Position numbers and translations under genes: made by a program. Under the pieces are notes generated by a model. That model worked only from the letters and a program-made list of their open reading frames with translations. It was not told the origin of the DNA and did no database searches. A DNA stretch of 64,000 nt from Liolophura sinensis (lineage: Eukaryota > Mollusca > Polyplacophora > Chitonida > Chitonidae): assembly GCF_032854445.1 (NCBI RefSeq), contig NC_088304.1, positions 36,005,551 to 36,069,550 of the forward strand. The letters are read 5' to 3'. Below are positions 32,701-63,180 of this stretch, piece after piece; positions within the stretch are counted from its first letter, which is position 1; each line of letters begins with the position of its first letter.

Positions 32701-35700
32701 AATCTTTTAATATTATTTAAGTCTCAGTCACTTTGCAATCTCAATGGATTGCAGAACTTGCAGGACACACAATGATGTCACCGTACATGTACATGTATGT
32801 GCATCGAACTTAACAATTTTTCAGTCATATGATGATGGAGACCTTAGAGTGCGTATATGTGTTATTGTGCCCTCTTGTTGCAGGACGGATATCCACCGCT
32901 CTTTTATCTAGTGCTGCGTCACTGAGATGACTAACCAAAGGCAAGTAAGCCGTACCATCCGAGCCATTATACTGATACGGGTCAATCAGTCGCTGCACTA
33001 TCCCTTTCATGCTGAACACCAAGTGAGGAAATTACAACTTCCCCTTTTTAAGTCTTAGGTGTGACCCGACCCAGAATTGACCCTGGATCTATCGCTCCTA
33101 AAGCGGACGCTCTACCAACTGTGCTAGCGGGGCCCATCTATTATACATGTGACTATTCAAACGCTGGTCAAGACAACGTTTCATACTTCACTTTAAACTT
33201 CACCTACATTTGATATTTAAACATATATGTATATAAATATGCATGGGATTTTAATTCATATTTAACAATTTTTCAGTCAAATGATGACGAAGAGTCATTA
33301 AATGTGTGTACACGTATTGTGTCTGGTTGTGGCAGTGCAAGTGTACATGTACATGTAGACTTTCAGAAGAGAGTGGTCAGAGGAATAACATAAGCTGCTA
33401 AACTGTTTTCTGACATTAAAGTCAGCATTGTGTATTAAATGTGTATTAAGTGTACTCGTAGATCATTTCAACAAAATCAATGTATTTTTATAGGCAGTGA
33501 GCAGAAAAATAGACGTTACAATAAAACAAATACAGCCAAACCTGTTGTATGCGGCCAGTGAAGGGACACGTAAAAAGTGGCCGCATATGACAGTTGGCCA
33601 CATAAGACAGATTCTGAAGACCAAGCCAAATCACAACTGAATTAAGTTTCAGGAAATGTACACATGTAGGCCTACATAATAATCTTATACATTTTGTTAC
33701 AGCACTAATCTGTTCTGCGACATAAATTTCATAGAAATATAACAATTGTAGTAAAATAATAACTCAATAATTTCAAATTTTGTGGAGTGGACCTATGGAC
33801 TTCACGCATTTAACAGGCGATTACAGAAAGAGTTTCGGGTGAGGGCACGTAGGCCTATGACAGGAGAACTTTCTTCCCATCATTGTCAAGCCCTGGAAAG
33901 CCATGTGCTAGTTTGGCCTACGTAGGTATAAATGACTATTCTAACAAAGTTTTGGACTGTAAATGGCAGACTGCTGAGATGTTCAATCATATTTGGCATT
34001 ACCGGTGAAACAACAACAACATGTACGAGTGAAGGAAGGTCAGTTTCTCCATGTGTCCGGTACAGGCAATATTTTGGCCATGCGAAATGAAAACACAACA
34101 TCATTTGCCTGCAAAGATAATGGCCAAGCAAGCCAGATAATTTATCAAAGAAACCATTCATGGGAGGAACCACAGGAGGTCAGATTATATCCGATTAGGC
34201 CTATATCGGAGTTTGCCCGCTGTTTATGGCATTAATAGCGGGGACCTCAGCACGGCGCTAATCCACTGCCACATTGCAGGGGTGTCCGTACAATAACCAG
34301 CTAGGCCTGATTAAAGAACAATAGACTTCAGTGCTATTGACCAATAATGTTCACACTTCACTTGTCATCACAAAGGGGCAGGTTGTAACTTCTAATCACA
34401 ACAAAAGCTATTGAAGTCGTGTGGTCGCCATTTTGAAATTTTTGAATGTCCGATACGGCAAGCATCATTACTCTTGAAAGTCTCGGTCGCTCAGGACAGG
34501 ATGATATAGAATTTGGTAGCAAAATGGCCGTTGGACGCGTTGGACAGGTGCCCGCATATTACAGGTCATTTAACATAAAAAATTGCTTGGTCGCGGCCGC
34601 TTACGGCAGATGGACGCTGATTACAGGTGGCCGTAGGTACAGGTTTGACTGTATCAGTTTTTCAAATGTATTTCAAACAGTATTTTCATTCTTCTTTGTA
34701 ACTTTAATATGAACTTCCTAGTATTAGTCCAAATACAGCAAGCCAACCTGGAGGTAAATTATCCACATATGCGTAGCACCAAGCAAAGAGCAAGCATTTT
34801 ACAAGCAATGCCATTTTTTTACAGTTAAAAAAACATATTACAGTACAATTTTATGCAGAACGAAAAAAATCCTTTTAACATACTGCACACAGAGGAAGAG
34901 AAAGGAAGGCAGGGCGAAAAATTTGAGGCCAGCAAGCATGTAAGCAAATATCCACACACAAACAAACGGCCTACCTGTACATGTATCTCGGCTGGGATTA
35001 GAATGCACTGTGCTGGACTGTTCCCTGTGTGTTTCCCTGGAGATGTCCTCTTCCCGGGACCACCACTGTCGCAGACACTAAGGTCAGAGTGTTCTGTCCT
35101 TGATAAGCAAGGTTCACTTCTCAATTCCACACTGTCACTACTTGATGGTGATTGAGGTGGTGTTGATGATGATGACAATGCCTTAATCTCTGTCTCATCT
35201 GGACTAATGTTGCCCGAGTCATCACTGCCATCAACATCATTACCATCATCTTGTCCACTTTTGGAATGAGATTCATCATCTGAGTGACCTTTCCTGCCAT
35301 TTTTCTTGCTGGAATCTTTATCATCGCTGTCATTTTCAATGCCTTTCCTGCTCAACCTTTTGCCACGATTATTTCGCTTTTCAGTTTTTCCTTTTCCAGA
35401 CTGTGGAGATCTGGTCTTCTTTTTGGTCAGATTTTCCATCTGTGGAGACCTACCTCTACTGTGTAAACATGAAGTGTCATCTGAGTGAATGTCACTATTA
35501 TGCAAATCTGCATCAACAGCTTTTTGTACCTTATTCACAGAAGATCCTACTCTCACAGACTCTACCGATGATGAAGAAACGCTGCGAGACTCTACATTCG
35601 CCTTTCTATTCTTCCCCCTTTTAGTGTTTGACACTGCCTCGACATCTGTGACCGATGATTCTGAATCAGAAACAATTCTAGGGGATATGGTTGGTTTGCT

Positions 35701-38700
35701 ATTACATGTATTTCCCCCAAACAAACGTTCGTCATTTGCATCAAACGCGCTTGAGCTTGTATCGGAAACTTGCTGCATCTGAATCTGTTTCTTTAACTTG
35801 CATTCAGCCTGTTTCTTTGACAATCTGTCTCGAGATCTCCTTCTTGGTGACAATCTGTCTTGAGCTCCCCTTCTCGGAGACAAACTCTCCAGCTCTGATA
35901 AAGTAGCATCAGAATCAGTCAACAATTCTGTTGAATGAGCCTTGGATGAACTTGAATTTAGCTTCATCTCTTCCTTCTTTCTTTTTGTTTTTTTGGGACA
36001 CAAATGCTTTGCACTTATCTCTGACACTAAAGTAGAAATCTCAAAGTCACTCTCACAAGATCCAAGTAACTTTTTCTGCACTTGTTTGCCACTACATGCT
36101 TGCTTTGAATCACTATTCTTTGACGTAATATTTGTCTCTGGCAAACTATCTGAGTCGGAATCAGTGAAATCTGTCTTATTGTTTACAACATCCATATGTT
36201 CACCTGTTTTCATTTTTTCTAATTTAGATGTTTTTTTGCCTGAGTTTTTGTCCTGGGATTCAGAACCTCTGCTTTTCTTCTTACTAACTGGCATAACACG
36301 CCTTGCAATAACAATTTTACTTTCTTTGGTCTCAATGACATCGCTTTTGTGTTTTCCTCTGGGCGTCTGTGAACGTGATCCCACCGTCTCAACTATCAAA
36401 TCACTTCCCTCGTCGCTAGATTGAATGACATCGCTTTTGTGTTTTCCTCTGGGCGTCCGTGAAGGTGATCCCACCGTCTCAACTATCAAATCACTTCCCT
36501 CGTCGCTAGATCGAATGACATCGCTTTTGTGTTTTCCTCTGGGCGTCTGTGAACGTGATCCCACCGTCTCAACTATCAAATCACTTCCCTCGTCACTAGA
36601 TTGAATGACATCGCTTTTGTGTTTTCCTCTGGGCGTCCGTGAAGGTGATCCCACCGTCTCAACTATCAAATCACTTCCCTCGTCACTAGATTGAATGACA
36701 TCGCTTTTGTGTTTTCCTCTGGGCGTCCGTGAAGGTGATCCCACCGTCTCAACTATCAAATCACATCCCTCGTCGCTAGATTGAATGACATCGCTTTTGT
36801 GTTTTCCTCTGGGCGTCCGTAAAGGTGATCCCACCGTCTCAACTATCAAATCACTTCCCTCGTCGCTAGGTCGAATGACATCGCTTTTGTGTTTTCCTCT
36901 GGGCGTCCGTGAAGGTGATCCCACCGTCTCAACTATCAAATCACTTCCCTCGTCGCTAGATTGAAAAATACATGTATCACTATTACTTCTAGAAATATTT
37001 CTTTGCTTTATGTTTTCAATTCGCTGATCGCTGATGGATGATTTCCTAGTAGAGGATCTACATTTACGACCATAAGAATTGTCTTCTCTGCACTTCCTGT
37101 TAGCTGCTGGCTGGTCCCTTCCACGTATCCCTTTGTCGTCCCGTATCTTCTTCTTTCCTCTCCGAGATGAACCGTGACCCCTTGAATCCGCGTCTCCTGA
37201 CTCCCCATCAACACTATCACTTCCAGATCTGTCAACTGAATATTTCAATCTTTGCCTCAGACTCTTGCTTTTTAAAGCTCCAGGCTTCTTACCATGTGCT
37301 GGCTCGAAATCACTGTCACTCTCTGAGACAATTCTTTGCTTGACATTTCCACTAGTTCCTGATCTGCGAACTCTTCTCGGTGACACTTGCACATTCTCAA
37401 AGTCAGAATCAGACTCCGATGAACCAGTTGATTCTACAAGGAACCTCATTCGACATTTTCTTTTCTCCTTTGTTGTCTTCAGTTCGGTTGGGGAACTCGT
37501 CTTCCTACAGGGACTCCTTTTTATAGGTGATTCTGTAACTCTCTTGTCTGAGTTATCATCACCGACTAGATTTGCACAGAATGCCAGTTTACTCCCAGTT
37601 TTGTGAGACTGGATAACATTTCTAACAAGGAAGGTAGTTTCACTGACTCTAGGGAATGACTTTTCTTTCACTATATCCACCAATGAGATGACGCAGGGCT
37701 TGATGTCAAATTCTTCACTTCTTTCACTGCTGTCATCCACTTTACTCTGCCGAAATAAATTTTGTCTTCATGACATGATGTAACAGTTTGAACCGAGTAA
37801 AACAATTCAAATGTCTGACTTTCAACACTCGCCTATAAAGTGAAGTTTACTTAAAAATATTCATGTCATCATGATGAAAAAATATTCACCTTCATACCAA
37901 TACAAAAGCTAAATTGCTTGAATACCAGGTTTGTCCTTAAAGGGCCATTTCGGTGAACCGCCAACTATTTTACCTTGCAAAGCCAGGTGAGTGAAACATA
38001 TACAATATACCACATTTACATTTCCCACAACTGCCATTCTTTTAGTTCAACTGTTGTGATATCTAGCAGTATACAGGAACTGGGTGCTAATTTTCGCTCG
38101 ATGGTCTACACTCTGACCTAGTGGAAGCATGCTTCCTACAATAGATACTATAAATCACCTCAAAGTTCGCCCACAAAAGTGCATTTTTGAGGCAAATAAA
38201 TGTCACAAAATACTGGTATTAGTTTTGGTGCTGAAACATACAATTTTCCAGCAGAATATCATCTCATGTTCCAAACAAATCTCAAAACATCTTCCTAAAA
38301 TCAACATTACTCCCAGAATCAGGAAAAATGGACGAAACTTGGTGTGACATTGGGGTGTTTGTTATATTGAAACTTTAAGGCAAAAAATAAACTTCCCATT
38401 CCCAGTACATTCTGGCTAAAAAAAATAAAAAAAATTGCGAAACTGAAAATACCAAGTGTTGCTTTGAACTCCTGACATTTCATTAAATACCGACAAAAAG
38501 CAACTGAAGCCTCAAACTGCAAAGGGGGCTGCGCTGACTGTGGAGTTAATTCTACATGTGCGTGTATCATGAAAACAACTCTGCTGTGGCGAGTGTACAT
38601 GTACATGTAGTTCCATTGTGCCTAAAACGGAAAAATGTGGCTTATTCTGTCTGGACAAGGCATTCAGTTTACCAAGCAAAGTCAGTGAATGTAGCTACAG

Positions 38701-41700
38701 TATAGTGTCAGTCCAAACTGACTTCAGGCCCTGTGTGCATACCGTTTGAGGGTGAACATCAAGGCAGGTTTTGTCATCTTCAAACTGTTTGATAAACCTG
38801 ACAGCTGTCCATTTGATGTGTTTTGTTGTAGAGTTTTCTTTTAACATTTCATACATCCACAGACATTTGCTCCATTCTTTTCTAAACTAAACACATCTGA
38901 ATGCTATACAGAATTAATATTTTCAAATTAACACAGAACTTAAATGATCTAAAACAGATGAAAAAAGAAAAACGACTCTGACCTACTGTGAGCAGTATTG
39001 AAAGAGATGTCACTTGTTTTCACACCGGCCTGTGAATGCTTTTAATCAATGGTCAGTGACCAGTCACCTTTTAAGCAGTCGAACGTAAAATATTCATTCG
39101 TCATTATCACAGCCTGTGATTCATGCTTGATGAATGCAGTCAAGCAACACGATCAGTTTGGATTGTTTTCGGTTTTAATCGTCCTCTGTAGCCTATCAGA
39201 AATCACAGTTAACCATTACATATATAGCTATCAAACGGCAAATTGCGCTGTTGTATACAGTTGACAATTTGTTAGAAGCCCACTCATTGGTCCACAGTAC
39301 ACACACACGCCAATGGGATAGCATGTAACAAAGCAACATTCATCTCAAGTTAGCGCGTGCTGTATCTACTTTTCTTTCACTTTCATACCGGAGACTGATC
39401 AAAATAAGTACGAACGAACTCCTACTTTGTTTCATACCCACTAAGCTGTATCACCATAGTTTGCATATATCTAAAGCTTAATTTTTGTTTAATTACAGCA
39501 AATACACGCATGATCCAACACTTCAGCTTGGCAATTGGATATGAGTTCACCTTCTACTAGAAGAATGCATTCACCATGCCAGGCACATTCATCCATCATA
39601 TGCGTTTTGTATGAAAAATAGTGTGTTTACAAGGTCATGAATTCACAGGTCCAAAATGTTGACAAAAAAATGTTCAGTGAAAAACAAGTAACAAGTGTTC
39701 TTCTCCATATGGTACATGCAGAAGATTGATGAAAACTGTTAGAAGGCTAGGAGAGATATTTTGTTTTAGAGAAATCTGTGAAAAAATCTAACTAAATTAC
39801 ATGTACATATCCCTTTTCACCTTAAAAACTTAGCCAAGGTCAATGTCAAAGTGTATACATTTAACATGGATGTGGTACTGTATGTTGGATGAATCTGGCT
39901 ACAGGCATGTTTACATTAGAGGGGGCAAACGGGCACACAGGAACTGAGCACACTCCTGGGTCAAATTGGGTCAAGGGGTAAACGTGATACATGTACGCCG
40001 CTCTGCCACATTCAATAAAAGAGAAATTAGCATAAATTGTAATGAAAACTTACCGGTTGTTTTAGTGGACGTTCTTTCCTATTCGACACTTTCAGTGACT
40101 TTTGCGTCTCTCTTGATCTCTGTATCTTTGTGGTAGATTTTCCCCTTTCTGAGTCTGACTCACTATCTGCATCAATGCTGGTTGCTGAGTCACTATCTGC
40201 ATCAATGCTGGTTGCTGAGTCACTATCGGCACCAATGCTGGTTGCTGAGTCGCTTCCAACTGCTGAGGTATCACTGCACAAGACATAACTCTTAACACCT
40301 CCCCTTGTCTTCTCTTTCCCTCTCGATCTGACAGGGGAAACAGCAGCCTCCAGCTTTCTCCTGGCAGGGCTTCCCTTCTTTGCTTGACTTAATGCTTTCA
40401 CCGTCACAACTTCAGCCCAATCCGAGTCAGAGTCAATGTTTTCTATATTTACTCTAGCACTTTCTGTCTTTCCAATTTTTGAAACTGGTTCATCATCAGA
40501 TTTCCCTGTCAAGCTCTTTTCACTCTGTAAAACATTAAATAGACCTTCAACCTCTTCACTGGAACTACTTCCATCCGAATACGAAGCTTGCTTAGATCTC
40601 AGGTTTGTCATGGACCTCTTTGAATCAGACTTGTTTCTGACCCGTGATTTGTTGGTAAGTGAGGAAGTCTTCGACACACTCTCATCGGAAGTGTGAAGTT
40701 CAATACGTTGTTGCCTCTTGTCAATACGTGTTTGTGAATCACTTTGGTTAGAATCACTATTGTCTGATTCAAGAGAAATCCTTTTTCTCTGTGATCTTTT
40801 CTTTGTTACTGCCTTAAGTGGCTTGATAAAGTCCGAGTCACTTTCATCACCTGCCCAGTCAACTGGTAACTCTGATCTTTCTGACACAGACTTCTTCCCA
40901 GGTGAAGTTTTCTTAGCACTCTCAAACTCACTATCTGAGCCACTCCTGTTGAACTCTATCCTTTGTCTAGCAGTTGACAACTTTGATTTTTCTGACTGTA
41001 TGCCATGGGAAGTTTTCATAGCACTGTCAAAATCGCTTTTAGAACTGCTCCTGTTAAACTCCGTCCTGGCGCTGGACCTTCTCGGTCTCTTATTCGTAAA
41101 GCTCCCACCATCTGATGTACTTTCAGTTGAATCACTGTCAACAGTTTTTCTCTTTTTGGACATCTTCATTATCGGATTGATGCTAATTTTTGTCGTTTTT
41201 GCCTTTTCTAGAAGCACTGAACAATTTCTGACACTGTGACGAGCTTTCACTGATGAGCCTTCTTCTTCTGAGTCAGAAGCAGATGCTGGTTTCTTTGTTC
41301 CTTTGTTCATGCCTTTTACACGGCAGATGTCTGAGTCACTTCCTACAGATTCTGAGTCATTGCTGTCACTTTCCTTTTTCTTTGTTTTGAGGAGTTTGCA
41401 GTCTTCATCAGAGCTATTGCAACGGGAATTGCCTTTCTGGACCTTTTTTGCTTTTTGTTTCTGTTTTGGGGAGAATCCTCTGTGTCCATGATCAGATCCT
41501 GAACCTGATGAGGCTGATATCACCCGTTTTCGCTTGGCCTTTGTTCTCCACTCAGCAAGACTTAGTCGGCGTCCTGTTTTTCCCTTGAGAATTTCACCTG
41601 AAGAACCTGAGCCACTTTCAGTGCGGATGTCATAGAGACGAACACAGCACGGTTTAAGTTCATTCAATTTCAGGTTCATTTCTTCCATCGCTTCACCCAT

Positions 41701-44700
41701 GGAAACGATTCTCTTTGGCCTCTTAATACCAGAGTACTTTTTGGTTGACCTGGCCTCTTTTAGTTTCCATGTTGTTACAATTGATGCATCCGATGACAGG
41801 TGCTCCAGTTCTTTCTCGGGTGATTTTTCCTGTGCTCTTTCCTCTTCTGACAAACTCGACGGTTTATATTTGTGATCATCATCAGCTCCATATTTGCCAT
41901 TATCAAGTTTCTTTCCTTCTACATCATCATGTCCATTTATTACATCTTCACCATCATCCTCACCATCATCTTGGACAACATTCCGACCTCCACCATCCTT
42001 ACTATCATCCTGTCCTTTGACCACTTTGTTAGACTTTGTCTTTTTGACAACGTTACTGTCCTTGTTGTCCTGCTTGAATACCCGGCAATCTTCCTTGTTT
42101 GTCTCCTCTCCTTCTCTCCCTCTGTTTATCAGGACTTTGTCTCCAGATTTCTGAAATGATACATGATTGAAGAAAAATAAATCATGTGCTATTTCTAGCA
42201 TCCAATGGGTCCTATTGAGCAATATAGGGCAGAGTTAGAAATATCACATGCATACATTCACCAGTGCAGCCATTTACATGTATCTAAAGACATGTAATAA
42301 AATCAGAAAAACAATTACTTACCAGTTTTACATTAAATTACATTGTACAGGTAAAAATCTGATGCCGTTTATACATGTACCATTTCATTAAATATATCTT
42401 GATACTTTTAAAACTCTTTTTTTTTTTGTTTAAATAAAGTGAGTGCTTAGGGTTTAACGTCGTACTTAACAATTTTTCAGTCATATGACAACGAAGAAAT
42501 CCTTAGAGTGCATGTAATGTGCCTCCTTGTTGCAAGACAGATTTCCACCACTCCTTTATCTAGTGCTGCTTCACTGAGACGACTTACCGAAGGCAAGTAA
42601 GCCGACCTGCCCGAGCCATTATACTGATACGGGTCAACCAGTCGTTGCACTATTCCCTTCATGCTGAATGCCTAGCAAGGAAGTTACAACTTCCTCTTTT
42701 AAAGTCTTAGGTGTGACATGACCCAGGATTGACCCTGGAACTTCCACTCCCAAAGCGGACATGATGATTTGTTAATTATACCATGATGATTTGTTATTAT
42801 ACCATGAAGATTTGTTAATTATACATGATAATTGGTAATTATACCATGATGATTTGTAAATTAAACCATGATGATTTGTTAATTATACCATGATGACATG
42901 TTAATTATACATGATAATTGGTAATTATACATGATAATTAGTAATTATACCATGATAATTTGTTAATTATACCATGAAAATTTCTTAATTATACCATGAT
43001 TTTTCACCTTCATCTCTATATAATAAAACAGCTGTGTTACAGGTATAGTTGCATACAATGTTACTACATGTATTTATAATCAAATGGCAAACATCTATGG
43101 TAAATGACAGCAAATGTCACCCAAAAAGGGCATTTCTTGTCACAAATAAATGCAGCCATACCGAGGTGAGGAGGTTTTGTGTGGAAGTATGAATGCATGC
43201 AACCATACATGTGCCAAGGGGAGAAGGTTTTGTGTGGATGAATGAATGCATGCAGCCATACATGTGCCAAGGGGAGGAGGTTTTGTGTGGAAGTATGAAT
43301 GCATGCAACCATACATGTGCCAAGGGGAGAAGGTTTTGTGTGGATGAATAAATGCATGCAGCCATACATGTGCCAAGGGGAGAAGGTTTTGTGTGGATGA
43401 ATGAATGCATGCAGCCATACCGAGGTGAGGAGGTTTTGTACGAATGCATGCAGCCATATATGTGCCAAGGGGAGAAGGTTTTGTGTGGATGAATGAATGC
43501 ATGCAGCCATACATGTGCCAAGGGGAGGTGGTTTTGTGTGGATGAATGAATGCATGTAGTCATACTGAGGTGAGGAGGTTTTGTGTGAAAGTATACATGC
43601 ATGCAGCCATACATGAGCCAAGGGGAGGAGGTTTTGTGTGGATGAATGAATGCATGTAGTCATACCGAGGTGAGGAGGTTTTGTGTGAAAGTATACATGC
43701 ATGCAGCCATACATGAGCCAAGGGGAGGTGGTTTTGTGTGGAAGTATGAATGCATGCAGCCATACATGTGCCAAGGGTAGGTGGTTTTGTGTGGATGAAT
43801 GAATGCATGCAGTCATACCAAGGTGAGGAGGTTTTGTGTAAAAGTATGAATGTATGCAGCCATACATGTGCCAAGGGGAGGTGGTTTTGTGTGGATGAAT
43901 GAATGCATGCGGCCATACATGTGCCAAGGGGAGGAGGTTTTGTGTGGAAGTATGAATGCATGCAGCCATACATGTGCCAAGGGGAGGTGGTTTTGTGTGG
44001 ATGAATGAATGCATGCAACCATACCAAGGTGAGGAGGTTTTGTGTAAAAGTATGAATGCATGCAGTCATACAGAGGTGAGGAGGTTTTGTGTGAAAGTAT
44101 GAATGCATGCAGCCATACATGTGCCAAGGGGAGGTGGTTTTGTGTGGATGAATGAACGCATGTAGTCATACTGAGGTGAGGAGGTTTTGTGTGAAAGTAT
44201 ACATGCATGCAGCCATACATGAGCCAAGGGGAGGTGGTTTTGTGTGGATGAATGAATGCATGTAGTCATACCGAGGTGAGGAGGTTTTGTGTGAAAGTAT
44301 ACATGCATGCAGCCATACATGAGCCAAGGGGAGAAGGTTTTGTGTGAAAGTATAAATGAACAAATGAATGCATGCAGCCATAACGAGGTGAGAAGCTCTT
44401 GTGTGAGTGCCCAAACTGGGTAACCCCACATACACATCTGGGTCCAGTATGTATGTACTGTTTTGTATCTCTCACCACATAGGACACTTCTAAGATATAT
44501 GAACGTAACAATGGAAATGGAGACAGACAAGACAACCAGCTTGACTCTACAAATGCAGTCTTCATAGGTTTAAATACTAAGTTAACAGGAAACCAATTTA
44601 ATGAAAAATTAAGTGGTAAATCTCAAAGTTATTCAAAGAGCAAACAGATGTGTAACAAAAGAAGTGAAAATAAGAGTCACAAATGCAGATGTCGGTCTTC

Positions 44701-52734: not shown

Positions 52735-52777
52735 ATGTTACTTGTGTTTGGAGCGCTGCTGCTGGTTTTCCTGGCTG
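52735..52777 (+). CDS. Cysteine-module gene exon 1 (signal peptide)
   Basis: ATG at 52735, 14 hydrophobic codons plus one base, donor GGCTG then gtaggt. This short leader is missed if only long open frames are considered. Confidence 0.85.
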
Positions 52778-55700
52778 GTAGGTCTATAGATTTCTGATGT
52801 CGTATGTACAGATATGCATTGTTCACTTGGATAATGACAGTGGCATGCAGGAAAACATGAATGTTTAGAGCAAGCATTCATGTTTGACGACTCATGCACA
52901 CTTCTCCTTCCCCTGCTGTAGCCTGTTTGACACACCTCGTGATTTTTTCATATAAAAAGTAACAAGAGCTGGACTCACTCCTCCTACCTACAGTTGGTGA
53001 GCAAAGTTGTGTGTTAAAATCTATACAAAATCCTTCATTATACAATATAATGTAGAAAAAGAAAAATACGTGTTCAGATGATTTCTTCTGATGTCATTTT
53101 TGCGACTTAAAAGGTTGGGGCGGCCAATTTCAAGGGCTGGTAGCTAAATAAGCCAATTGCAAGGTCAACTTACATGTGTTGGTATTAAGTTCGGTCATTA
53201 TTTTAGTACCATGCTGAACAGATGGCCACCGACCTTAACCCATCATATGTATATCTCTATACTTGAAACAAGGTGCTTTTCTCAAGGTACCATATGGCAA
53301 TGTCACCACCTATGTGCCCACAAGTATCCAGTAAAATTCATATACACACTGACGTCTATCTGCGGGTTTGGATATCTTGATCATATTTATCCAGATAAAC
53401 ACAATAAACATTTTACTGATTTCATGCTAACTGATTACAACAGATTTCACAAAAAAGTTTCGTTAAGTTTCATGCAGCCACAATTGATGTGTATTGTTAA
53501 AATTCTCCTCAATAATGGAAAATGCAGTTTGAAGTCATATTGAGATCTTTCTTATGTAACTAAATCTATTAAGTACAAGGTACTGTATTTAAGTAAATTC
53601 TTTAAAATCTATATATTGCGAGGTTTCTGATGGCCACGGTATAAAGGCGATTATTTATCACACTTAGCACGTGTTTGCTTTCTTTCCATGCAGGGGCCGA
53701 TGCGCGCTGCAAGACGGACTTTGAATGTCTGCCGCTGACGCTGTGTATACGAGGCAGTGCTCCGGCCTGTGACGAGGGAAGATGTATTTGTATGAAGGCA
53801 GAAGCTAAGAAGTCTCTGACTCATGGTAAGTGGCTACACATTGTATACTTCCCTAAAAAAATAATTTCCGGACTAATTATGCTTATTTACGTTTTTGTTT
53901 GTCTCACTCATCCTATGATCCGCTGTCACAAAACGTCTTAGTCGTAAATAAACTCTGAATCCCTTTATCTCCAAAATCATGTCATGACCCAAGCATGGGT
54001 GTTGTTGAATATGACATTTCAGCGGGGAAACTACCCCATCCAGTCAGATATCTGCCAACATTTATCTTTTAAACACGCCACCTTCGGTGAAGGCATATGT
54101 GAAGGTCAAAGCTGAGCCACTTATAGCCAAAGTGTCAAACTGGAGCCTCTATTATCTAGGCGTCATCAGGAACAGCAAAACAAAGTATTTCCTCAGTACC
54201 AGAAAAAGTGTTATTATTAAAGCCTTACCCGAAAGTATTATATAAAACGTGCTTTTATTAGTAGTTACATTTTATGGTTTGTTTTCATTTTTTGTATCTA
54301 AAGTTTTCTTTTTTTTTCAATGAGCGCTTTGAAGATCATGGTCTGGTAAATACATTGAGGAATAGAAGACAGTCGAGCATTAATTAAATATAAGTATAAT
54401 GAATAATATCTCATGCTTACTACAGAGGTTGGTGCTGCAGGGAAGAGTAATACTCATCAGTTTACCACCTACAAATTTATAGACATCACATATTTCCCCA
54501 GCGTTTGCATTTTTTCCCCTTTTATAAATATCTTGACGCCCATATATCTTGACGTCCGATTAATAAAACGCCATCGTTTTTTGAAACTGTAAATCTCTTT
54601 TTAAACATGGATAATCCCGTCCTTTACTGACAATGCTTGGGGTATTTCAGAGACTAAACGGCAAAGAACTTGTCACAGAGATTTCGAGTGTCAGTCACAG
54701 AACACCTGTTTCGTTGGTGACTCCCTGTGTCAGGGTGGACAGTGTGTGTGTGTCGGCCTTGGCAAGAGGGACGTCTCCAAAGGTTCGGTGGTAATGCTAT
54801 ATAGCACAGTTTTGAACTGAAAAACAACTGACCGGAACGATGCGTATTTCTTTTGTGTGTTTGTTTTTTGGAAAAATCGAATGATTGACCAAATGTTGTG
54901 TAACGCTATATTTAAGAATTGTCATACTTGCATGATGGCAGTCAGCTGTATGGGTGGAAAGTGGGATTGTTCGAAAATAAAGTTCTATCGGCCTTAGGCC
55001 AGTTACTAGCGAAATTCTCCACATGTAAGTAACTTACGTAAACAGATTTGAAGGCCATATTGGTGAAGACAAGCGGTCTAAAACGAACGTTAGACATGGG
55101 TGAGAGCGGGGAAATCTACAAGTTCCCTGTTCAAATGCTGGGTTCGTCTCTTGTCTCGTAGAGATTGAAAGGATCCAAAGGCCTTTTATCTACCAGAATA
55201 GGGCCACACCCATTTTAAATCATATGTCTAGTGCAAATGTCTGCAGCGCTATACGTCATGCACACGTTGTGTTATGTTCCAGAGGGAACGGCTGAATGTG
55301 AGATGAACATGCAGTGCTTGGTCAGAATGATGTGTATGTTTGGTGGAGCGTACTGTGATAGGGGGACATGTCAGTGTCCATCATCCCCAAGACGTAAGTG
55401 CTGAGGTATATACTGCAGTAACAAAAATGCAAAAGCAAGGGTTTCTCTCCGGTTTTGCGTGGAAAGGTCTACCAACAACTTGCAGATGGTCGTGGGATTC
55501 CTTAAGGCTCTGCCCACCATAAAGCTGACTGCCGTTGTATAAGTGGAATATTTTTGAGTACAGCGAAAACACCGAACCAATAAATACATAACAAAATCAT
55601 AACATGAAGTAATATAACAATAAGTACTTGACGTTGTTTTGTGTTGGCTGACATGAAGTTCACGTACCCTCCACCAATATGACAAATATCACACTTGAAA

Positions 55701-58700
55701 AGGTTAGCTCTTAAGCCCGTATGCACCAACAGAGATTAAGTTTTGTGTTAAGTCATGCCATTGATATTTAACTTAAGGATGACTTTGTCGTTTATATGAC
55801 TGATCGTGTGGTATGGTATAGCGCATTTTTCACGTCGCTGCATTCCGTGTATAGCATCATAATATCTGTGTATAGTACATTGGCTTGTACAGGAAAACGC
55901 AACAAAAATTTCTCTAAAAAAATTGTTACTAGATTTGACTGAACATTATAAATCTGTGAATGAAGACAAACGACATGACCGTGAAGCATTGGTGCAGAGA
56001 GAGCGCCTGGACACTGATAACCGAGGCGTTGCCAAATGGGACGTATCCCAATTAAAAACCAAGTGGAAAAATGCAAAAGCAAATGCAAAGAAAGAAATTA
56101 GTACCAAAAAAAGAAAAACACCAAACAGGAGGAGGTACATTGTGTAGTGGAGAGGCACATTTCCATACAGAACTAATTTCTGCTAACGCCGCGTGATAAC
56201 CCATTTGATGATTACGTTAGTGATGACGGAAATGGGTCATCTACGCTTAAAACTGAAACCCGAAACCATGGACTGAATTCTGACCAGTAGGAAAGTGGCT
56301 CAATAAAAGACCATAAGCTATCTCCTTTCTTCAATCAATTTAACTCCAGCTCATGTTCTTTGACCTGACATACACATTACAGAAAACAACTTTATACATG
56401 CATGGCTTTTTTCGCGCTCTGCCACACTTTGATAATCTTTCAAAAGGTACAGCGGAAATACTGACCATATTTAAATATAAATGAAGAATATGATTTTGTT
56501 GTCGAGTGATAAACAGATATCTGTACAGCACCTAACAGTCAAAACTGTTATGATAATTCATAATCCATATTTCATGCACAATAATATAATATAATATAAT
56601 ATAATATAATATTATATTATATATATATATATATATATTATCCTGAGATTCTTCCGGTACTAATTGAACAAAAAACCATGATTCACCTTCGACGTCAACA
56701 GCAACATCCCCAAGAGCCAAGAAGAGAAAACTTTCCAGCCGAAACGCCGAATGAAAAAATGAAGTTGTTCAACATTAAATTAAAATATACCACATAAAAA
56801 CAAAACCTAAAATGGAAATATTGCGTACACAGATAAAGGCCGTGTCTTCTAGACCTGTGAGACAAATTGGGATATCGTTTATGGATGTCGACGTCCGAAA
56901 ACAGACCAAAGGGGTTTGAACGATCTCGAAACATACGCTCAAGTGGTTCTGTAGCATCTAGTTCGTCGAAAGTGTAGACAAAATCCATCCTTCCTAATCA
57001 GAAACAAAACGCCAAGTGCTTATCTCAAAGTTAAGCCTACCCCAGGGGAAGTTTAAATATTCACACTTTCTACGCTCTAACTTAAACTAGAAGTTGGTGC
57101 ATCACGGATTACTCTTTTTATCTCAGCTTAAGACAAACTTAAATTGACTGGTACAGGTCTTACAGCTTGCCAAAGTTACAAACGCGGCGATGTGTTCAGC
57201 GGTTTTATGGATATGTTATCAATCGTTTTAAAAGCATAATATCACTAGTTGTGGTAAATTTCATCTAACAAAGCTGACTGGTGGAGAAAACGAATGGCGT
57301 CTCTGGGAAACTCTAGTGTTTTTATTCACGTCATGCATGAGTTAATTTTTTGTTGATTCTCTCAGATAACACAAAGGAAATCTGTCAATATTAGGCACGT
57401 TAAAGTGTAAGAAATGTGAGATCTTTGAAACCTTGAATGGTTTAGAATTATTACTCCGAGATAATCAGATAAGATTAGTAAGGTACAACTGTCTTCTGTT
57501 TTTTCATAGCTGCCCGTGCGATGTGCAATAGCGACTTCCAGTGTGGCTTGATGGAGTGTTTTGTCGGTTCAGCTCATTGTACGAGTGGGGTGTGCCGATG
57601 TTTAGCCGGTAAACGAGAACTGGAGAAGGGTACGTAGATGGCGGAATCCTGGTAATAAGTCTTCCTTCTCGTTTTCAAGCACTGCACCTGGCTTGAAATC
57701 ACATAAAGAAGAGAGGAGGTAACAAATAAATACATGTTCTTACATGTTATCATACATGTTATTATAAATATATTACCGTGGAAATAGGTTTTTTCCGGTC
57801 AAACACATATCCGTTCGAACGTTCAAAAGGCTCTATCAATGATGTTTGACTGCTGTATTATGACATTCTTAATTTAGTTAGGAAATGAAGGTTGGGGCAT
57901 TTAAATTAGTCTATGAATACGTACTGCTCAGATTTTTAAAGTCTGTGCAAACTTAAACACGTGTCACGACTGAAAACTATAACAACATCTTGTTCAGTAA
58001 AAATGCTGTCCAAATTGTCTGTAATTTTACAGTAGATTTCATTGTGAGATATTGCACAACTTTTTGTGTACATTTAAAACACCTGCTTGTACAAGTAACG
58101 ATAACATACTCCGGCTCTAAAATCACGAAAACAGTGCAGAATTACAGCTTAGTAAGACAACTACCGATAACCTGCAAATTCCCACTGCAGAAACAAAATT
58201 GTCAGTAGTTTATATTTGGTTCTAAAAGTGCTCGATCGTTTGTAAAATTGTACTATAATCTGTCTAATATATTTTTGGTAATCACGAGGTCTTGCACTAT
58301 TTGCAGTCCCAAGAGCCATGTGCACTAGCGACTTCCAGTGTGATTTGATGGAGTGCTTTGTTGGTTCGGCTCATTGTACGAAGGGGGTGTGCCGATGTTT
58401 AGCTGGTAAACGAGAACTGGAGAAGGGTACGGAAATAGCTAAGTACATATTTCTCAGGTTAAGGTTATGAATTAATTAATTAATTTCATTTTAATTTATT
58501 TATTTGATTGATTTTTTTACGCCGTACTCAAGAATATATCAGTTATGCACAAAACTAGGGGGAAACCCAGGGCCATCCACAGGTTACTGGTAGATCTTAC
58601 CACGTACGACCGGAGACCCCAGGTGTTATAATTTACACTCGTGATAAGGCTGTTTGTCAGAAGCCTGACAGAGGTCGATGGTTTACTATTAAGGGCAGTC

Positions 58701-60210
58701 CCTCACCCATATTCCTGACCTTTGTCGTGATACACCTAGAATAATTCCATAGTATGTCGTTAAACATGCACCAGTGCAATTAATAAATTTACTGAACTTG
58801 TCAATATTACATTTGCTATCAAATAGGGGATGCTGTATGTGAAAAATATTTTAGCAAGGCATGCGTATTGGCAAGACTGTAATCCTAGAAGCGTCTGCGC
58901 AATATTAAAGGAGAGTATTCTCGAAATTCGAGCTTGCTAACCCTGTGTAATGGGAACGAATGTAAATATTGTAACCCTTGTGACAAGACTGTACTCTGCC
59001 TACTTGAAAATAATTATTCACAATTCTGTTGTTATTGAAATCAGTGGTATTGTTATTAATCATAAAATGTAGGCAGAACGAGATACGAGAGATGCATACT
59101 TACGTGTGTAACAGCTGCGTCCCTATTTAGAGTGAGTGAGTGAGTGAGTGAGTGAGCGAGTGCTTGGGGTTTTACGTCGTGCTCAACAATTTTTCAGTCA
59201 TGTGACGACGAAGGAATCCTTAGGGTGTATGTAATATGCCTCCTTGTAGCAGGACGGATTTTCACCGCTCTTTTATCTAGTGTTGCTTCACTGAGACGAC
59301 TCACCGAAGGTAAGTAAGCCGCACCGCCCGAGCCATATTACTGATACGGGTCAACCAGTCGTTGCACTATCCCCTTCATGTTGAACGCCAAGATCTTAGG
59401 TGTGACTCGACCCAGGATTGATCCGGGTCTACCGCTCCCGAAGCGGACGCTCTACCAACTGTGCTATCCGGGCCGGTCATCCCTATTTAGATGTCTGACC
59501 TGTCACACGCAGGCAAACTCTGACCAACTCATCCATGCATATGTACATGTATATCAGTTGGTAACAGGTTTGTAACCTATTGGCTCTGAACTGAGTGGTA
59601 CCACAAGGAAGGATCCCCGCACTGTACCAATAAATTACTCATACGCAGGTTGCTGGCAGACCTTCCCACTTACGGTCGGAGGTGGAAGTCATACTGAGCT
59701 GGACTTGAATTCACAGCGACTGCATTAGTGGGAGGCTCCTGGGTATTTACGCCTCGCTGGCTTGACCACGGCCCCCCCCCCTCCCGCCAAAGAAATAAAT
59801 AAGGAAATCAAAACAAAATTGTAACCAAGCTATTACCAGCTGGTATCAAATTAATTACCACCTGGAACGGGTTGGTAACATCCAATATTGAACTGTTCTG
59901 TCAGCACTTGGTATATCAGCCACACTGCACTTGAGTGTAACTCAGTACTATGAAGCTGTAACCAGCCATGAAAAGGCCAGTGTGATATCAATCTTTCAAA
60001 CGTTTCATGTGCATAGCGAGCCTACACTCATTTCTCTATGCAAAAGTGCATTCTTATGCATACAAACGAAAGTAAAACGTACTTGTATGAAGGATAATTC
60101 TGATTTCAGCACCACGGGCTATGTGTCATGCTGACTGGCAGTGCTCAAGCCTGATGCTGTGTTTTGTCGGCACCGCGTCTTGCGCTGATGGCGTCTGTCG
60201 ATGCCCCTGA
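52735..60210 (+). CDS. Secreted six-module cysteine-rich protein, 7 exons
   Basis: Exons 52735-52777, 53694-53825, 54651-54782, 55283-55393, 57510-57629, 58307-58426 and 60110-60210 join to 759 nt, 252 residues, TGA at 60208-60210. Every intron is phase 1. Residues 1-15 are a signal peptide (MLLVFGALLLVFLAG, likely cleavage near ADA). Six modules follow, one per exon, each with six cysteines: C-x5-C-x(4,5)-C-x(6,7)-C-x4-C-x-C. Modules 2, 4 and 5 end in GKR (residues 96-98, 173-175, 213-215), the amidation plus dibasic signal. Basic pairs also lie near residues 52-53 and 61-62. The spacing recalls EB-type and other small disulfide modules, but no named family fits confidently. It acts outside the cell by inference. 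It may be a peptide precursor, a protease inhibitor-like or defence protein. Exons 5 and 6 are near-identical duplicates. Confidence 0.85.
53694..53825 (+). CDS. Cysteine-module gene exon 2 (module 1)
   Basis: Acceptor ccatgcag before GGGCCGATG; donor CATG then gtaagt; 132 nt, phase 1-1. Cysteines at residues 20, 26, 32, 40, 45 and 47. The linker contains AEAKKS. Confidence 0.88.
54651..54782 (+). CDS. Cysteine-module gene exon 3 (module 2)
   Basis: Acceptor gtatttcag before AGACTAAACG; 132 nt, phase 1-1. Cysteines at residues 66, 72, 78, 85, 90 and 92, then VGLGKR. The inferred donor is AAAG then gttcgg, which is poor. A better-looking gtaatg 8 bases on would break the frame to exon 4. Confidence 0.8.
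55283..55393 (+). CDS. Cysteine-module gene exon 4 (module 3)
   Basis: Acceptor gttccag before AGGGAACGG; donor AGAC then gtaagt; 111 nt, phase 1-1. Cysteines at residues 108, 114, 120, 127, 132 and 134. The tail is PSSPR, without GKR, so this is the most divergent module. Its intron carries a SINE and a Harbinger-type element. Confidence 0.85.
55427..55588 (+). mobile_element. SINE family A, 5'-truncated
   Basis: CAAGGGTTTCTCTCCGG, CAACAACTTGCAGATGGTCG, AAGGCTCTGCCCACCATAAA, TTGTATAAGTGGAATATTTT, GAGTACAGCGAAAACACCG and an AATAAATACA tail follow family A with many changes. The 8-bp repeat TAACAAAA (55419-55426 and 55589-55596) may be its target duplication. Confidence 0.75.
55890..56147 (+). 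pseudogene. Myb/SANT-like DNA-binding domain remnant
   Basis: An open frame with LLLDLTEHYKSVNEDKRHD, then KWDVSQLKTKWKNAKANAKK resembles the Myb/SANT-like domain that accompanies Harbinger transposases (helix ending in LKxKWKNxKxxAKK). The preceding GKRNKNFSKK is in another frame, indicating a frameshift. Stop at 56145-56147. Confidence 0.55.
56578..56640. repeat. AT microsatellite
   Basis: AATAT repeats run into an (AT)n tract of about 25 bp, inside the Harbinger-type element. Confidence 0.9.
56775..56988 (-). pseudogene. HARBI1-like transposase N-terminal fragment
   Basis: Minus-strand frame starting MDFVYTFDELDATEPLERMF, then RDRSNPFGLFSDVDIHKRY. The [VF]RDR[ST]NP-x3-[FY]-x-[DE] pattern is typical of Harbinger/HARBI1 nuclease N-termini. 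No DDE residues remain, because the rest is deleted. It converges on the Myb-like remnant. Confidence 0.55.
57510..57629 (+). CDS. Cysteine-module gene exon 5 (module 4)
   Basis: Acceptor tttcatag before CTGCCCGTG; donor AAGG then gtacgt; 120 nt, phase 1-1. Cysteines at residues 145, 151, 156, 163, 168 and 170, then LAGKRELEK. Nearly the same as exon 6. Confidence 0.9.
58307..58426 (+). CDS. Cysteine-module gene exon 6 (module 5)
   Basis: Acceptor tttgcag before TCCCAAGAG; donor AAGG then gtacgg; 120 nt, phase 1-1. Cysteines at residues 185, 191, 196, 203, 208 and 210, then LAGKRELEK. About nine in ten bases agree with exon 5, mostly with silent changes. Confidence 0.9.
58490..58625 (-). mobile_element. 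SINE family A, internally deleted
   Basis: The plus strand has ATTTATTTGATTGATTT, ACGCCGTACTCAAGAATAT, then jumps to AGGGGGAAACCCAGGGCC, ACAGGTTACTGGTAGATC and CGACCGGAGACCCC. The ATTATGGTGG block is missing. It is in intron 6 of the cysteine-module gene. Confidence 0.75.
59132..59479 (-). mobile_element. SINE family B, full length, with TSD
   Basis: The plus strand starts with (GAGT)n (the 3' tail in complement), then TTTTACGTCGTGCTCAACAA, TTTTATCTAGTGTTGCTTCA and the head: GACTCGACCCAGGATTGATC, then GGACGCTCTACCAACTGTGC and TATCCGGGCCGG. It is flanked by the 12-bp duplication TCCCTATTTAGA (59120-59131 and 59480-59491). It is the only copy here with both tail and head, and defines the family. 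Confidence 0.93.
59640..59775 (-). mobile_element. SINE family A, 5' half
   Basis: The plus strand has CGCAGGTTGCTGGCAGACC, TCCCACTTACGGTCGGAGG, GCTGGACTTGAATTCACAGC and GACCACGGCC, the complement of the family A head and body start. The 3' end and tail are missing. A C-run of 12 or more follows the head. Confidence 0.8.
60110..60210 (+). CDS. Cysteine-module gene exon 7 (module 6, terminal)
   Basis: Acceptor gatttcag before CACCACGGG; ends C-R-C-P then TGA. Cysteines at residues 225, 231, 237, 244, 249 and 251. It shares the PRAMC start with exon 6 but has no GKR tail, as expected for a last unit. Confidence 0.88.
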
Positions 60211-60529
60211 CAGGATGACATAAATGGGTCAGTTATACAGGCAATGCGCCAAGCAGTATATATGTGTGACTTTACTGTGATTGTATGTTAAATGTGATGA
60301 CAACACAGCATTTTTGAGTAATTCTAAACCAAGGTCGTCTAATAAATTGCAATTAACATCATTGCATACTTTTTTTTACCTGATTCTGCTGAAGTCATGG
60401 TGATAGGGAGCGTGTAAATTGCTGCTTTATTAATGCATTTACCTGAACAGTTAGAATAAAACACTGGCTGAGGTAAATTGACAAGAGGCCCGATTTCACC
60501 AGTTACTTGTGATCATTGGCCACTTATCA

Positions 60530-60612: not shown

Positions 60613-60894
60613 GGCGACTTTGCTCCTGTGCGAGATTCCTTTTATCACGTGAGCTCTCTTTCAGAACTTTTCAATTCCGTAGAAAGTGATAATATTTTTG
60701 ATTTTCTCTCTACCATTGGTATGGCAGGAAAGCTGTGATTTTAAACTGCCGTCTGTGTTTGTTATGTGACTTCTGATGTCCTTTTTTGACTCAATAGTAA
60801 ATGAATTATCCGTAGGAGATCGACTACTTGACGTTTTATTGTCGCGATAAAACTGAAATATTGTTGAAAGCGACTTTAAAACTTTCACTCACTC

Positions 60895-61566
60895 ACTCCT
60901 GGTCTTACTCCATATGCTGTACGTCTATCACACTGTTGTCGTTGCTCCGGTGTTAATTCCTATGCTGTACGTCTATCACACTGTCGTCGCTGCTCTGGTC
61001 TTACTCTATATGCTGTACGTCTATCACTCTGTTGCCGCTGCTCTGGTCTTACTCTATATGCTGAATGTCTATTATACTGTTGTCTCTGCTCTGGTCTTAC
61101 TCCATATGCTGTACGTCTATCACACTGTTGTCGCTGGCCTGGTCTTACTCTCTGTGCTGAACGTCTATTACACTGTCGTGGTTGTTCTGGTCTTGCTCTG
61201 TATGCTGTACGTCCGTCACACTGTTGTCGCTTCTCTGGTCTCAATCCCTATGTTGTACGTCTATTACACCGTTGTCGCTGCTCTGGTCTTAATCTCTATG
61301 TTGTACGTCTATTACACCGTTGCCGCTGCTCTGGTCTTACTCTATATGCTGAATGTCTATTATACTGTTGTCTCTGCTCTGGTCTTACTCCATATGCTGT
61401 ACGTCTACCACACTGTTGTCGCTGGCCTGGTCTTACTCTCTGTGCTGAACGTCTATTACACTGTCGTGGTTGTTCTGGCCTTGCTCTGTATGCTGTACGT
61501 CCGTCACACTGTTGTCGCTTCTCTGGTCTTAATCTCTATGTTGTACGTCTATTACACTGTTGTCGC
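60895..61566. repeat. 48-bp tandem array, 14 copies
   Basis: The unit TGCTGTACGTCTATCACACT, GTTGTCGCTGCTCTGGTC, TTACTCTATA repeats in 48-bp steps. A block of variants (AATGTCTATTATACTG, then GGCCTGGTCTTACTCTCTG) occurs twice about 290 bp apart, showing a higher-order duplication of roughly six units. A 219-codon plus-strand frame (MLYVYHTVVAALVLLY-type units) has no splice, start or UTR support. Confidence 0.93.
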
Positions 61567-63180
61567 AAGTTAAAAGGAAACACAACACTCAGTCAAATAT
61601 GCCCATATATCCACATGTATATTACATGCATCGAGTATCGGCATACCCTTATAGTTTTGAGAGGTTGTATAACAGAGAATTTGCCGAGCAGAAAAAATGC
61701 TGTTTACATTTAGGTATGTTTCCACCGCTGTTCCGAAATAGTCGTTACAGTAATTGTTGCTTTTGGCTTTTGACTTCCTACCTTGGCTCTCTGCATTAGT
61801 GACTGACCAGGTGCTCTATGGCCCAATATCAACATGCGGTGACTGGGTGGGACGTTGTATGGCCAGAGTCTTCAATTCACTTACAAATTAACGTGTGATC
61901 TCATAGCACTGCCCCGTAATATTCCAACCCTGGACTAGATAATCCGTGTAGCCTGAGATAACTACAGTCGCATTCCTGATAGGGGTTGGCCGATGAAATG
62001 AAGCCAGTGAAACAGGACCTTTCACTATTTTTGCCTGTTGTAGATCCGCCATCATTTCCTGAAGAAAACACACACACACATACACACGCACGCCCGTTTT
62101 ATGAGTTTGCTAAAGGGAGAAACCATTTTGGTATAGGTGAAGTTAATTTGTGTACGAGATTAGATCTCACAAAAAATTCAGGGAAACAGTTGGTGAGATC
62201 AACGACAGCACGCATGCAGTAATATGTGTATCTACCAAACCCTATGCATTTGGTAAAATTGTGGACTCAAAGCAATGTCATATACCCAGGGTCGTAAAAA
62301 AGAAAACAAGAAATGACCATTTTCATTGACAATCACAGTGGCGCCCCAATCAGAATGTCCTATTCTGCCCTATTTATATATTGATGTACTTTGCCTGTTC
62401 TTCATTCTTATCTAGGTTGAGCGAAATTTTGAACTTTGACAAATCGACGTATGATGTATTGGGATTGTTACGGACGTGCTCGGGATGCTTTTTCCTAACT
62501 CCCCACTCCGTTGGTCTTGGTGCCCTGGCTTCCATGTATTGTGCACAATGACCAATAAATAATTTAGCTCAAACTATGAACAGTTTATTTGGAATTAGAA
62601 AGCTTAGATGCGTCTGTTTTCTCAGGGATGCATTCAAATCTGCTGTTTTGTTTGCGTTCTAGATATATTTCATATTTGAGAAAAATCAGTCTGACTTTAA
62701 GCCAGCTCCTGGTTATTTATTTTTATTTTATTTTATTTTTATTCAGCACTGAACAAGCTTGTTTACTGTGCTGAGTTTACCAGTCATCAATTACTTACGT
62801 TTGTAAGATTCCATTGTTCAACAAGAGTTCAGATAAACACAACATTTGTTTGAAATGTATCAAAAGAAAACGACCAGCATTGTGGTAAATTTAACCCCTG
62901 AGGAGAATCTTCATGGGTGTTGATGACAGGTGTGTGGTTACCATGACAACTGTGCAAGTGGACAAATGTGTCCACCACAAATGAAAACTTTATGCGGAAA
63001 ACTGTCGGAGTTATAACCCTCACACGAAATCATATCTACTTATACAGTGTATATAAGGACAATGGCCATCTGGTTGACAACCGATGACAACCGCGAAAAT
63101 GGACAAATATGTGTCACGACATATCGTTATTTGTGTATCTATGTATGCACCAAAGATTAAAACTCTGTGTTGAAACTGTT
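61567..63180. other. Intergenic, no gene seen
   Basis: Short frames only. A CA-rich microsatellite lies near 62067-62092 and a TTTTA/TTTAT-rich tract near 62715-62745. No exon of the preceding gene is found beyond its TGA. Confidence 0.4.

What the first reader, a model, noticed from the sequence alone, without database searches (positions are those of the whole stretch)
52735..60210. Exon-per-module secreted cysteine protein with GKR amidation signals
Seven exons read in one frame to a signal peptide and six C-x5-C-x(4,5)-C-x(6,7)-C-x4-C-x-C modules, all on phase 1-1 exons. Three modules end in Gly-Lys-Arg, where neuropeptide precursors are cut and amidated, and further basic pairs lie between modules 1 and 2. 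The layout suggests a polyprotein releasing several knotted peptides, some with an amidated Leu-Ala or Gly-Leu end. I cannot assign it to a named family. The exon structure is seen directly; processing is inference.
Basis: partly seen in the sequence, partly recalled or inferred. Interest (0 to 1): 0.85.

Follow-up and report, generated by a model that had tools for sequence, protein, structure and literature searches.

The report
Chiton tandem EB-module peptide precursor
A chiton gene encodes a secreted protein made of six small cysteine-rich EB-type modules strung together by linkers that carry hormone-type cutting signals, so it may release several disulfide-locked peptides, a strategy known from sea anemones but not seen by me in print for this module type.

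Summary
The gene model is confirmed: seven exons at 52735-60210, all introns GT-AG, 759 nt, a signal-like start plus six six-cysteine modules, one per exon. The genome matches the chiton Liolophura sinensis. The module can be assigned: the spliced protein matches Pfam EB (PF01683, E 5e-17, six stretches), although no module alone reaches the cut-off. A paralogue 234 kb upstream shares the layout. In the nine inter-module linkers of the two genes, basic residues are 25% versus 7% in modules, all 12 dibasic pairs lie in linkers, and ordered Lys-Arg occurs 9 times versus 2.1 in linker shuffles. That supports convertase cutting into separate peptides. Amidation is weaker: Gly-Lys-Arg is in 3 of 5 linkers here, 0 of 4 in the paralogue; two of the three come from an exon duplication, with Gly at a place where 78 of 98 other EB modules also have Gly. 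An uncut multi-EB protein stays a live rival: another EB array in this genome has equally basic linkers with many Arg-Arg pairs. Weak hints point to a CS-alpha-beta-like core. No transcript or peptide data were available.

The parts
52735..52777 (+). exon 1: start codon and signal-peptide-like hydrophobic leader
   Evidence: in-frame stop upstream, A at -3
53694..53825 (+). exon 2: module 1 and start of linker 1 (KK)
54651..54782 (+). exon 3: KR and KRQR before module 2, module 2, GKR after it
55283..55393 (+). exon 4: module 3; no dibasic pair after it, RPAR formed across the next junction
   Evidence: weak EB match in the genome search, E 6.6
57510..57629 (+). exon 5: module 4, GKR after it
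   Evidence: EB match E 0.59
58307..58426 (+). exon 6: module 5, GKR after it; duplicate of exon 5
   Evidence: 89.6% identity over 125 bp, no further match outside it at E<=1e-3; EB match 24.1 bits, 24.4 with its neighbours in the frame
60110..60210 (+). exon 7: module 6 ending C-R-C-P-stop
   Evidence: EB match E 0.08
60341..60346 (+). AATAAA, first polyadenylation-type signal after the stop

Best explanation
A secreted precursor in the chiton Liolophura sinensis. Shown by sequence: a leader-like start and six tandem six-cysteine EB-type modules, one per exon, joined by basic linkers with acidic residues; one paralogue of the same layout 234 kb upstream. Inferred: the leader sends it into the secretory pathway, each module folds with three disulfides, proprotein convertases cut the linkers at Lys-Arg and at R/K-x-x-R sites, carboxypeptidase trims the ends, and several separate disulfide-rich peptides of roughly 30 residues are released. 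Modules 2, 4 and 5 could in addition be amidated; this step is optional and gene-specific, not a family trait. The released peptides most likely act outside the cell (signalling, defence, or binding of channels or proteases); which of these is not resolved.
For: Gene model, start and polyA context. Pfam EB for the window protein and the paralogue. The paralogue is the only other locus at E below 1e-3 in searches of the genome with either protein; modelled. Linkers: 9 of 9 hold at least one R/K-(x0 or x2)-R/K site, 8 of 9 a dibasic pair; 12 dibasic pairs in 136 linker residues against 0 in 296 module residues; ordered KR 9 versus mean 2.1 in within-linker shuffles (0 of 20,000 reach it; with the duplicated linker counted once 8 versus 1.82, also 0 of 20,000). 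Within seven residues after CxC, dibasic pairs are in 6 of 11 target modules (5 of 9 without the duplicate and the terminal module) against 4 of 98 other EB modules, Fisher p 1.3e-4; GKR in 3 of 11 against 0 of 98 (target GKR counted). Exon matches to Pfam Cu2_monooxygen exist in the genome, 25 at E<=0.001 (that the amidating enzyme PAM belongs here, along with other enzymes, is recalled). [quoted passage not shown]
Against: No transcript, peptide or orthologue data. The controls are not independent of one another, the windows were chosen after seeing the linkers, and control stretches were read from unspliced DNA. A long EB array in the same genome (C1, 83.83 Mb) has equally basic linkers (24.9%) with dibasic pairs in 16 of 25, far above its own shuffles (mean 7.79), mostly RR (13), and KR slightly above too (4 versus 1.51, p 0.04); so dibasic pairs alone do not show cutting. 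Dibasic pairs before modules discriminate poorly (5 of 11 versus 19 of 98). Linker 3 has no dibasic pair. In the window gene alone the excess of dibasic pairs as such is not significant (4 of 5 linkers versus mean 2.82, p 0.23); only KR order (p 0.012) and GKR stand out.
Confidence: 0.55

Rival explanations
1. An ordinary uncut secreted multi-EB protein: the modules stay joined and act as a multivalent extracellular or mucus-type protein; basic linkers are exposed spacers.
For: EB family match; EB exons are abundant in this genome, 134 exon matches at E<=10, a lower bound, and one array has equally basic linkers with many RR pairs. Nematode proteins with three to five EB modules are reported (PMC5763927, passages). 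Tandem cysteine-rich secreted proteins that stay joined and act bivalently are a described class (PMC6262176, abstract and passages).
Against: Excess of ordered KR and confinement of all dibasic pairs to linkers in both paralogues; 7 of 11 target modules lack the Gly at +3 after CxC that 78 of 98 others have, and none continues as the xxGY...C arm seen in the C1 array.
Confidence: 0.38
2. Amidated neuropeptide-type precursor in the strict sense (a narrower case of the best explanation, so the two odds overlap): modules 2, 4 and 5 are released with amidated ends (Gly-Leu-amide, Leu-Ala-amide) and act as neural or endocrine hormones.
For: GKR 3 in the 5 linkers of the window gene versus mean 0.08 in shuffles; 0 of 98 other EB modules.
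Against: 0 of 4 linkers of the paralogue have GKR; two of the three come from one exon duplication; in modules 4/5 the Gly is at +3 after CxC, where 78 of 98 other EB modules have Gly, so it may be a family remnant. In the survey of molluscan proneuropeptides PMC6425005 the term 'EB domain' does not occur in the main text (find; the paper was not read whole).
Confidence: 0.15
3. Pseudogene or gene-prediction coincidence.
For: No RNA data were available here.
Against: Open frame through seven exons with GT-AG sites, upstream stop and polyA signal; Pfam match; duplicated exons 5 and 6 keep the frame, all cysteines and the linker residues.
Confidence: 0.03

Closest known systems
Pfam EB module (PF01683) proteins
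   Same: Spliced protein matches at E 5.3e-17, 62.1 bits, six stretches, above the cut-off as a whole; paralogue E 2.9e-12.
   Different: Each module alone matches only within profile positions 20-47 of 52 and scores 15.4-22.4 bits, under the 24.3 cut-off. Other EB modules of this genome mostly continue with Gly at +3 after CxC (78 of 98); 4 of 11 target modules do.
SCREPs, secreted cysteine-rich repeat proteins (PMC6262176, abstract and passages)
   Same: Leader plus tandem homologous disulfide-rich domains.
   Different: The authors mean domains that stay joined and say sequences with a cleavage site between domains should be removed; this protein has possible sites in every linker.
Multi-copy sea anemone peptide precursors such as Hau II, Am I, Ugr 9a-1 (PMC11552618, passages)
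   Same: Several disulfide-rich peptides per precursor; in Hau II basic residues after each copy and acidic residues before it.
   Different: Another peptide family (boundless beta-hairpin, cysteine pattern CXXC-C-C as the abstract gives it); Hau II has identical repeats and RKR rather than (G)KR. Gene structures were not compared.
Cystine-dense potassium-channel toxins (CS-alpha-beta fold, recalled)
   Same: A profile of the 11 modules finds 10 PDB sequences, nine named as potassium-channel-type toxins and one plant antifungal peptide, best E 0.027; the best model of module 5 aligns with scorpion toxin BeKm-1, rmsd 1.7 over 29 residues, Z 2.9.
   Different: Second and third Cys are 4-5 residues apart, not the 3 recalled for that motif; E-values are not significant, Z is low, and the model of module 2 has low confidence.

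Membership tests
Pfam EB (PF01683) | score above the curated cut-off for the whole protein | tested here: met
   62.1 bits versus 24.3; paralogue 46.9
Pfam EB (PF01683) | single module over the cut-off | tested here: not met
   six modules alone score 17.0, 15.4, 22.4, 21.2, 22.1, 18.0 bits; in the genome search the exon of module 5 has 24.1, or 24.4 with its neighbours in the frame
Pfam EB (PF01683) | eight cysteines per module (recalled from the Pfam description) | tested here: not met
   six cysteines in each of six modules
Neuropeptide or peptide-prohormone precursor | leader for secretion | tested here: inconclusive
   hydrophobic leader with A-x-A by eye; no SignalP
Neuropeptide or peptide-prohormone precursor | dibasic sites between peptide units | tested here: met
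   4 of 5 linkers, and 4 of 4 in the paralogue
Neuropeptide or peptide-prohormone precursor | conserved amidation signal | tested here: not met
   GKR in 3 of 5 linkers here, 0 of 4 in the paralogue
Neuropeptide or peptide-prohormone precursor | released peptides and a receptor | not testable with these tools
   needs peptidomics and receptor assays
CS-alpha-beta fold | helix Cys pair spaced C-x3-C (recalled) | tested here: not met
   C-x4-C in 2 and C-x5-C in 4 of 6 window modules; C-x5-C in 5 of 5 modules of the paralogue
CS-alpha-beta fold | fold match | tested here: inconclusive
   Foldseek best E 4.5, four rows, two described as scorpion toxins, one hongotoxin, one cystine-dense peptide; Z 2.9 at best among 8 chains aligned; model pLDDT 75.6, the other four models 50-56

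The most novel reading that the evidence does not exclude
A chiton lineage has turned the common extracellular EB module into a releasable peptide: the EGF-like trailing arm was lost, the module shrank to a compact six-cysteine cystine-dense core, and the linkers became convertase sites, in one gene also amidation sites. The result is a two-gene family of polyproteins that each release about five or six distinct disulfide-locked peptides.
Probability: 0.35. Interest if true: 0.6.

Novelty: new variant of a known kind. Interest (0 to 1): 0.42.

Why it matters
If true, it shows how a structural extracellular module can become a multi-peptide precursor by gaining cut sites in its linkers, and it gives a chiton peptide family with predicted masses that can be checked directly by peptidomics. 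The two paralogues, one with and one without Gly before Lys-Arg, would let amidation be compared on one scaffold. If false, it is an ordinary multi-EB secreted protein.

Tried and rejected
PDB search with the whole protein gave four pyruvate decarboxylase sequences at E 0.031-0.086, judged chance. NCBIfam gave one sub-threshold motif for the window protein and nothing for the paralogue. Late nodulin (E 0.045), Toxin_23, Toxin_37, Conotoxin_I2 and other Pfam rows are below their cut-offs. Control for the fold hint: 11 modules picked by hand from the C1 array and 6 from other loci find mostly proteins such as coagulation factors IX and X and heregulin, whose EGF domains are recalled; against my reading, the first set also lists two potassium-toxin-like chains at E 0.28 and 0.86. 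Scrambling the non-cysteine columns of the 11 target modules left 0 and 1 matches (the single one is again a potassium channel blocking toxin, E 0.48) against 13 for the unscrambled cores (best E 0.091). So the hint is not cysteine spacing alone, but it stays below significance. The second structure model (module 2) had pLDDT 60.6 with only the hairpin; it was not searched.

Literature searches, listings only unless said otherwise: 'EB module' with mollusc (1 paper); EB module/EB domain with neuropeptide precursor/amidat (251 papers, 20 listed, none of the 20 holds an EB term); EB module with cysteine-rich and toxin (2 papers); tandem cysteine-rich precursors (23 papers, 15 listed); PF01683 with mollus (1 paper); EB module/domain with annelid, mollusk, brachiopod (695 papers, 5 listed, none of the 5 holds an EB term); EB module with cysteines, Kunitz, secreted (224 papers, 10 listed, one with an EB term); chiton neuropeptides (35 papers, 15 listed); Urticina precursors (10 papers, 6 listed). 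No row listed presents an EB-module polyprotein in its title or abstract start; unlisted rows and most full texts were not seen.

Full report
What was checked. A stop in frame begins 33 nt before the ATG, and AATAAA lies at 60341 after the stop. A pattern scan of both strands of the window found the six modules and no others. No transcript data could be consulted.

Where it is. The assembly searched here has 609,464,459 bases in 632 contigs, with contigs of 96,433,062 and 19,479,325 bases. A chiton assembly of 609,495,693 bases in 632 scaffolds, longest 96,433,062 and one of 19,479,325, is published as Liolophura japonica (PMC11068029, passages) and corrected to L. sinensis (PMC12441733, whole text). 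The totals differ slightly, so the identification rests on scaffold number and lengths.

What it is made of. The spliced protein matches Pfam EB at E 5.3e-17 with six stretches. No module alone passes the cut-off (15.4 to 22.4 bits against 24.3), and those matches lie within positions 20-47 of 52. EB exons are common in this genome: 134 exon matches at E up to 10, a lower bound. I fetched 59 stretches covering many but not all of those places, chosen by going down the list and leaving out most copies of one tandem array. Their modules differ from the target: 78 of 98 unique ones have Gly at the third place after CxC, often followed by an aromatic and a further Cys. Four of 11 target modules have that Gly.

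The paralogue. Searching the genome with the window protein gave 11 rows: its own six, four at C10:35.824-35.828 Mb (best E 5.8e-7) and one weak one on C6, E 0.46. Reading that stretch (L001) gives a seven-exon gene with a leader, five modules of the same pattern and a unique last exon. It lies 234,431 bases upstream, start to start, on the same strand. Searching with it, typed with a slip at four junctions, found the same two loci plus two weak matches at E 0.24 and 9.8.

The linkers. Five linkers of the window gene and four of the paralogue were compared. Basic residues make up 25% of 136 linker residues and 6.8% of 296 module residues. All 12 dibasic pairs are in linkers; the 11 modules have none. 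Eight of nine linkers hold a dibasic pair and nine of nine at least one site of the general convertase form (that form is recalled). Against shuffles within each linker, KR in that order occurs 9 times versus 2.1 (0 of 20,000 reach it); a pair of any kind is in 8 of 9 linkers versus 5.03 (p 0.02); GKR 3 versus 0.13 (p 0.0002; with the duplicate counted once, 2 versus 0.10, p 0.003). For the window gene alone only KR order (p 0.012) and GKR stand out, not dibasic pairs as such (p 0.23); for the paralogue alone KR occurs 5 times versus 0.95 (p 0.0003). A frequent layout is core - xKR - spacer with acidic residues - KR, RR, PR or AR - core.

Controls that cut both ways. Within seven residues after CxC a dibasic pair is in 6 of 11 target modules and 4 of 98 others; before the first Cys in 5 of 11 and 19 of 98. 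The 98 are what remained of 109 after removal of 11 duplicates, and one stretch of 59 (L030) gave no module; control windows were read from unspliced DNA and the target strings were entered by hand. The long EB array on C1 has linkers just as basic (24.9%) with dibasic pairs in 16 of 25, above its own shuffles, mostly RR in an x-R-R-x-G-D-like setting; KR is slightly raised there too (4 versus 1.51, p 0.04). So dibasic pairs alone are not proof of cutting; the stronger points are their KR order, their place and the agreement of two paralogues.

Amidation. GKR after modules 4 and 5 goes back to one exon duplication: the exons are 89.6% identical over 125 bp, no match beyond that stretch was found, and the linker has no amino-acid change. 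Identical exons with unlike introns may mean constraint or exon-limited conversion; I could not tell. Their Gly is at the +3 place that most EB modules here share. In the paralogue the residue before the first KR is Val, Ile or Leu in three linkers (one linker has RR only), and Glu before the second KR of two linkers. Amidation is therefore possible but not a family feature.

Fold. A profile of the 11 modules finds 10 PDB sequences at E up to 10: nine named as potassium-channel-type toxins and one plant antifungal peptide (best E 0.027). Two sets of other EB modules find mostly EGF-domain proteins, the first also two toxin-like chains. Scrambled controls gave 0 and 1, the unscrambled cores 13. 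The best AlphaFold2 model of module 5 (pLDDT 75.6, other models 50-56) has a short helix and a hairpin; its four Foldseek matches have E 4.5-9, and Z is 2.9 at best, a level that the tool calls possibly only a common arrangement. The model of module 2 is poor. This is a hint only; resemblance to a toxin fold says nothing about toxicity.

Verdict. An EB-family tandem protein whose linkers look like convertase sites; separate disulfide-rich peptides are the better-supported product (0.55) over an intact multi-EB protein (0.38). The mode of action has precedent in sea anemone precursors (PMC11552618, passages) and the architecture in SCREPs (PMC6262176, abstract and passages). In the rows that my searches listed I saw no EB-based one.

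Noticed in passing
window 12083-14761 (-): Single open frame of 892 aa made of armadillo-type repeats (Pfam ARM_ARMC5 E 8.6e-44, ARM_LRRK2 E 3.7e-43).
   Followed up: partly
window 34825-37767 and 40027-42234 (-): Two long Ser/Asp/Lys-rich open frames (980 and 735 aa), one with internal repeats, no Pfam match at E<=0.01; perhaps exons of one gene.
   Followed up: partly
window 59402-59474 (-): tRNA-Pro (CGG) predicted inside the last intron of the gene, beside a dispersed repeat also present in L001; probably a tRNA-derived repeat.
   Followed up: no
window 60857-61573, 43064-44569, 20756-22925: Long repetitive stretches giving overlapping open frames in several frames.
   Followed up: no
genome C1, about 83.824-83.840 Mb (L011, L013, L028, L029, L056): Large array of EB modules, in part in open frames of 606 and 1068 aa, with x-R-R-x-G-D-like linkers.
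   Followed up: partly
genome C2, 9.077-9.087 Mb: Run of EB exons spaced about 1,155 bases with near-identical scores, suggesting recent tandem amplification.
   Followed up: no
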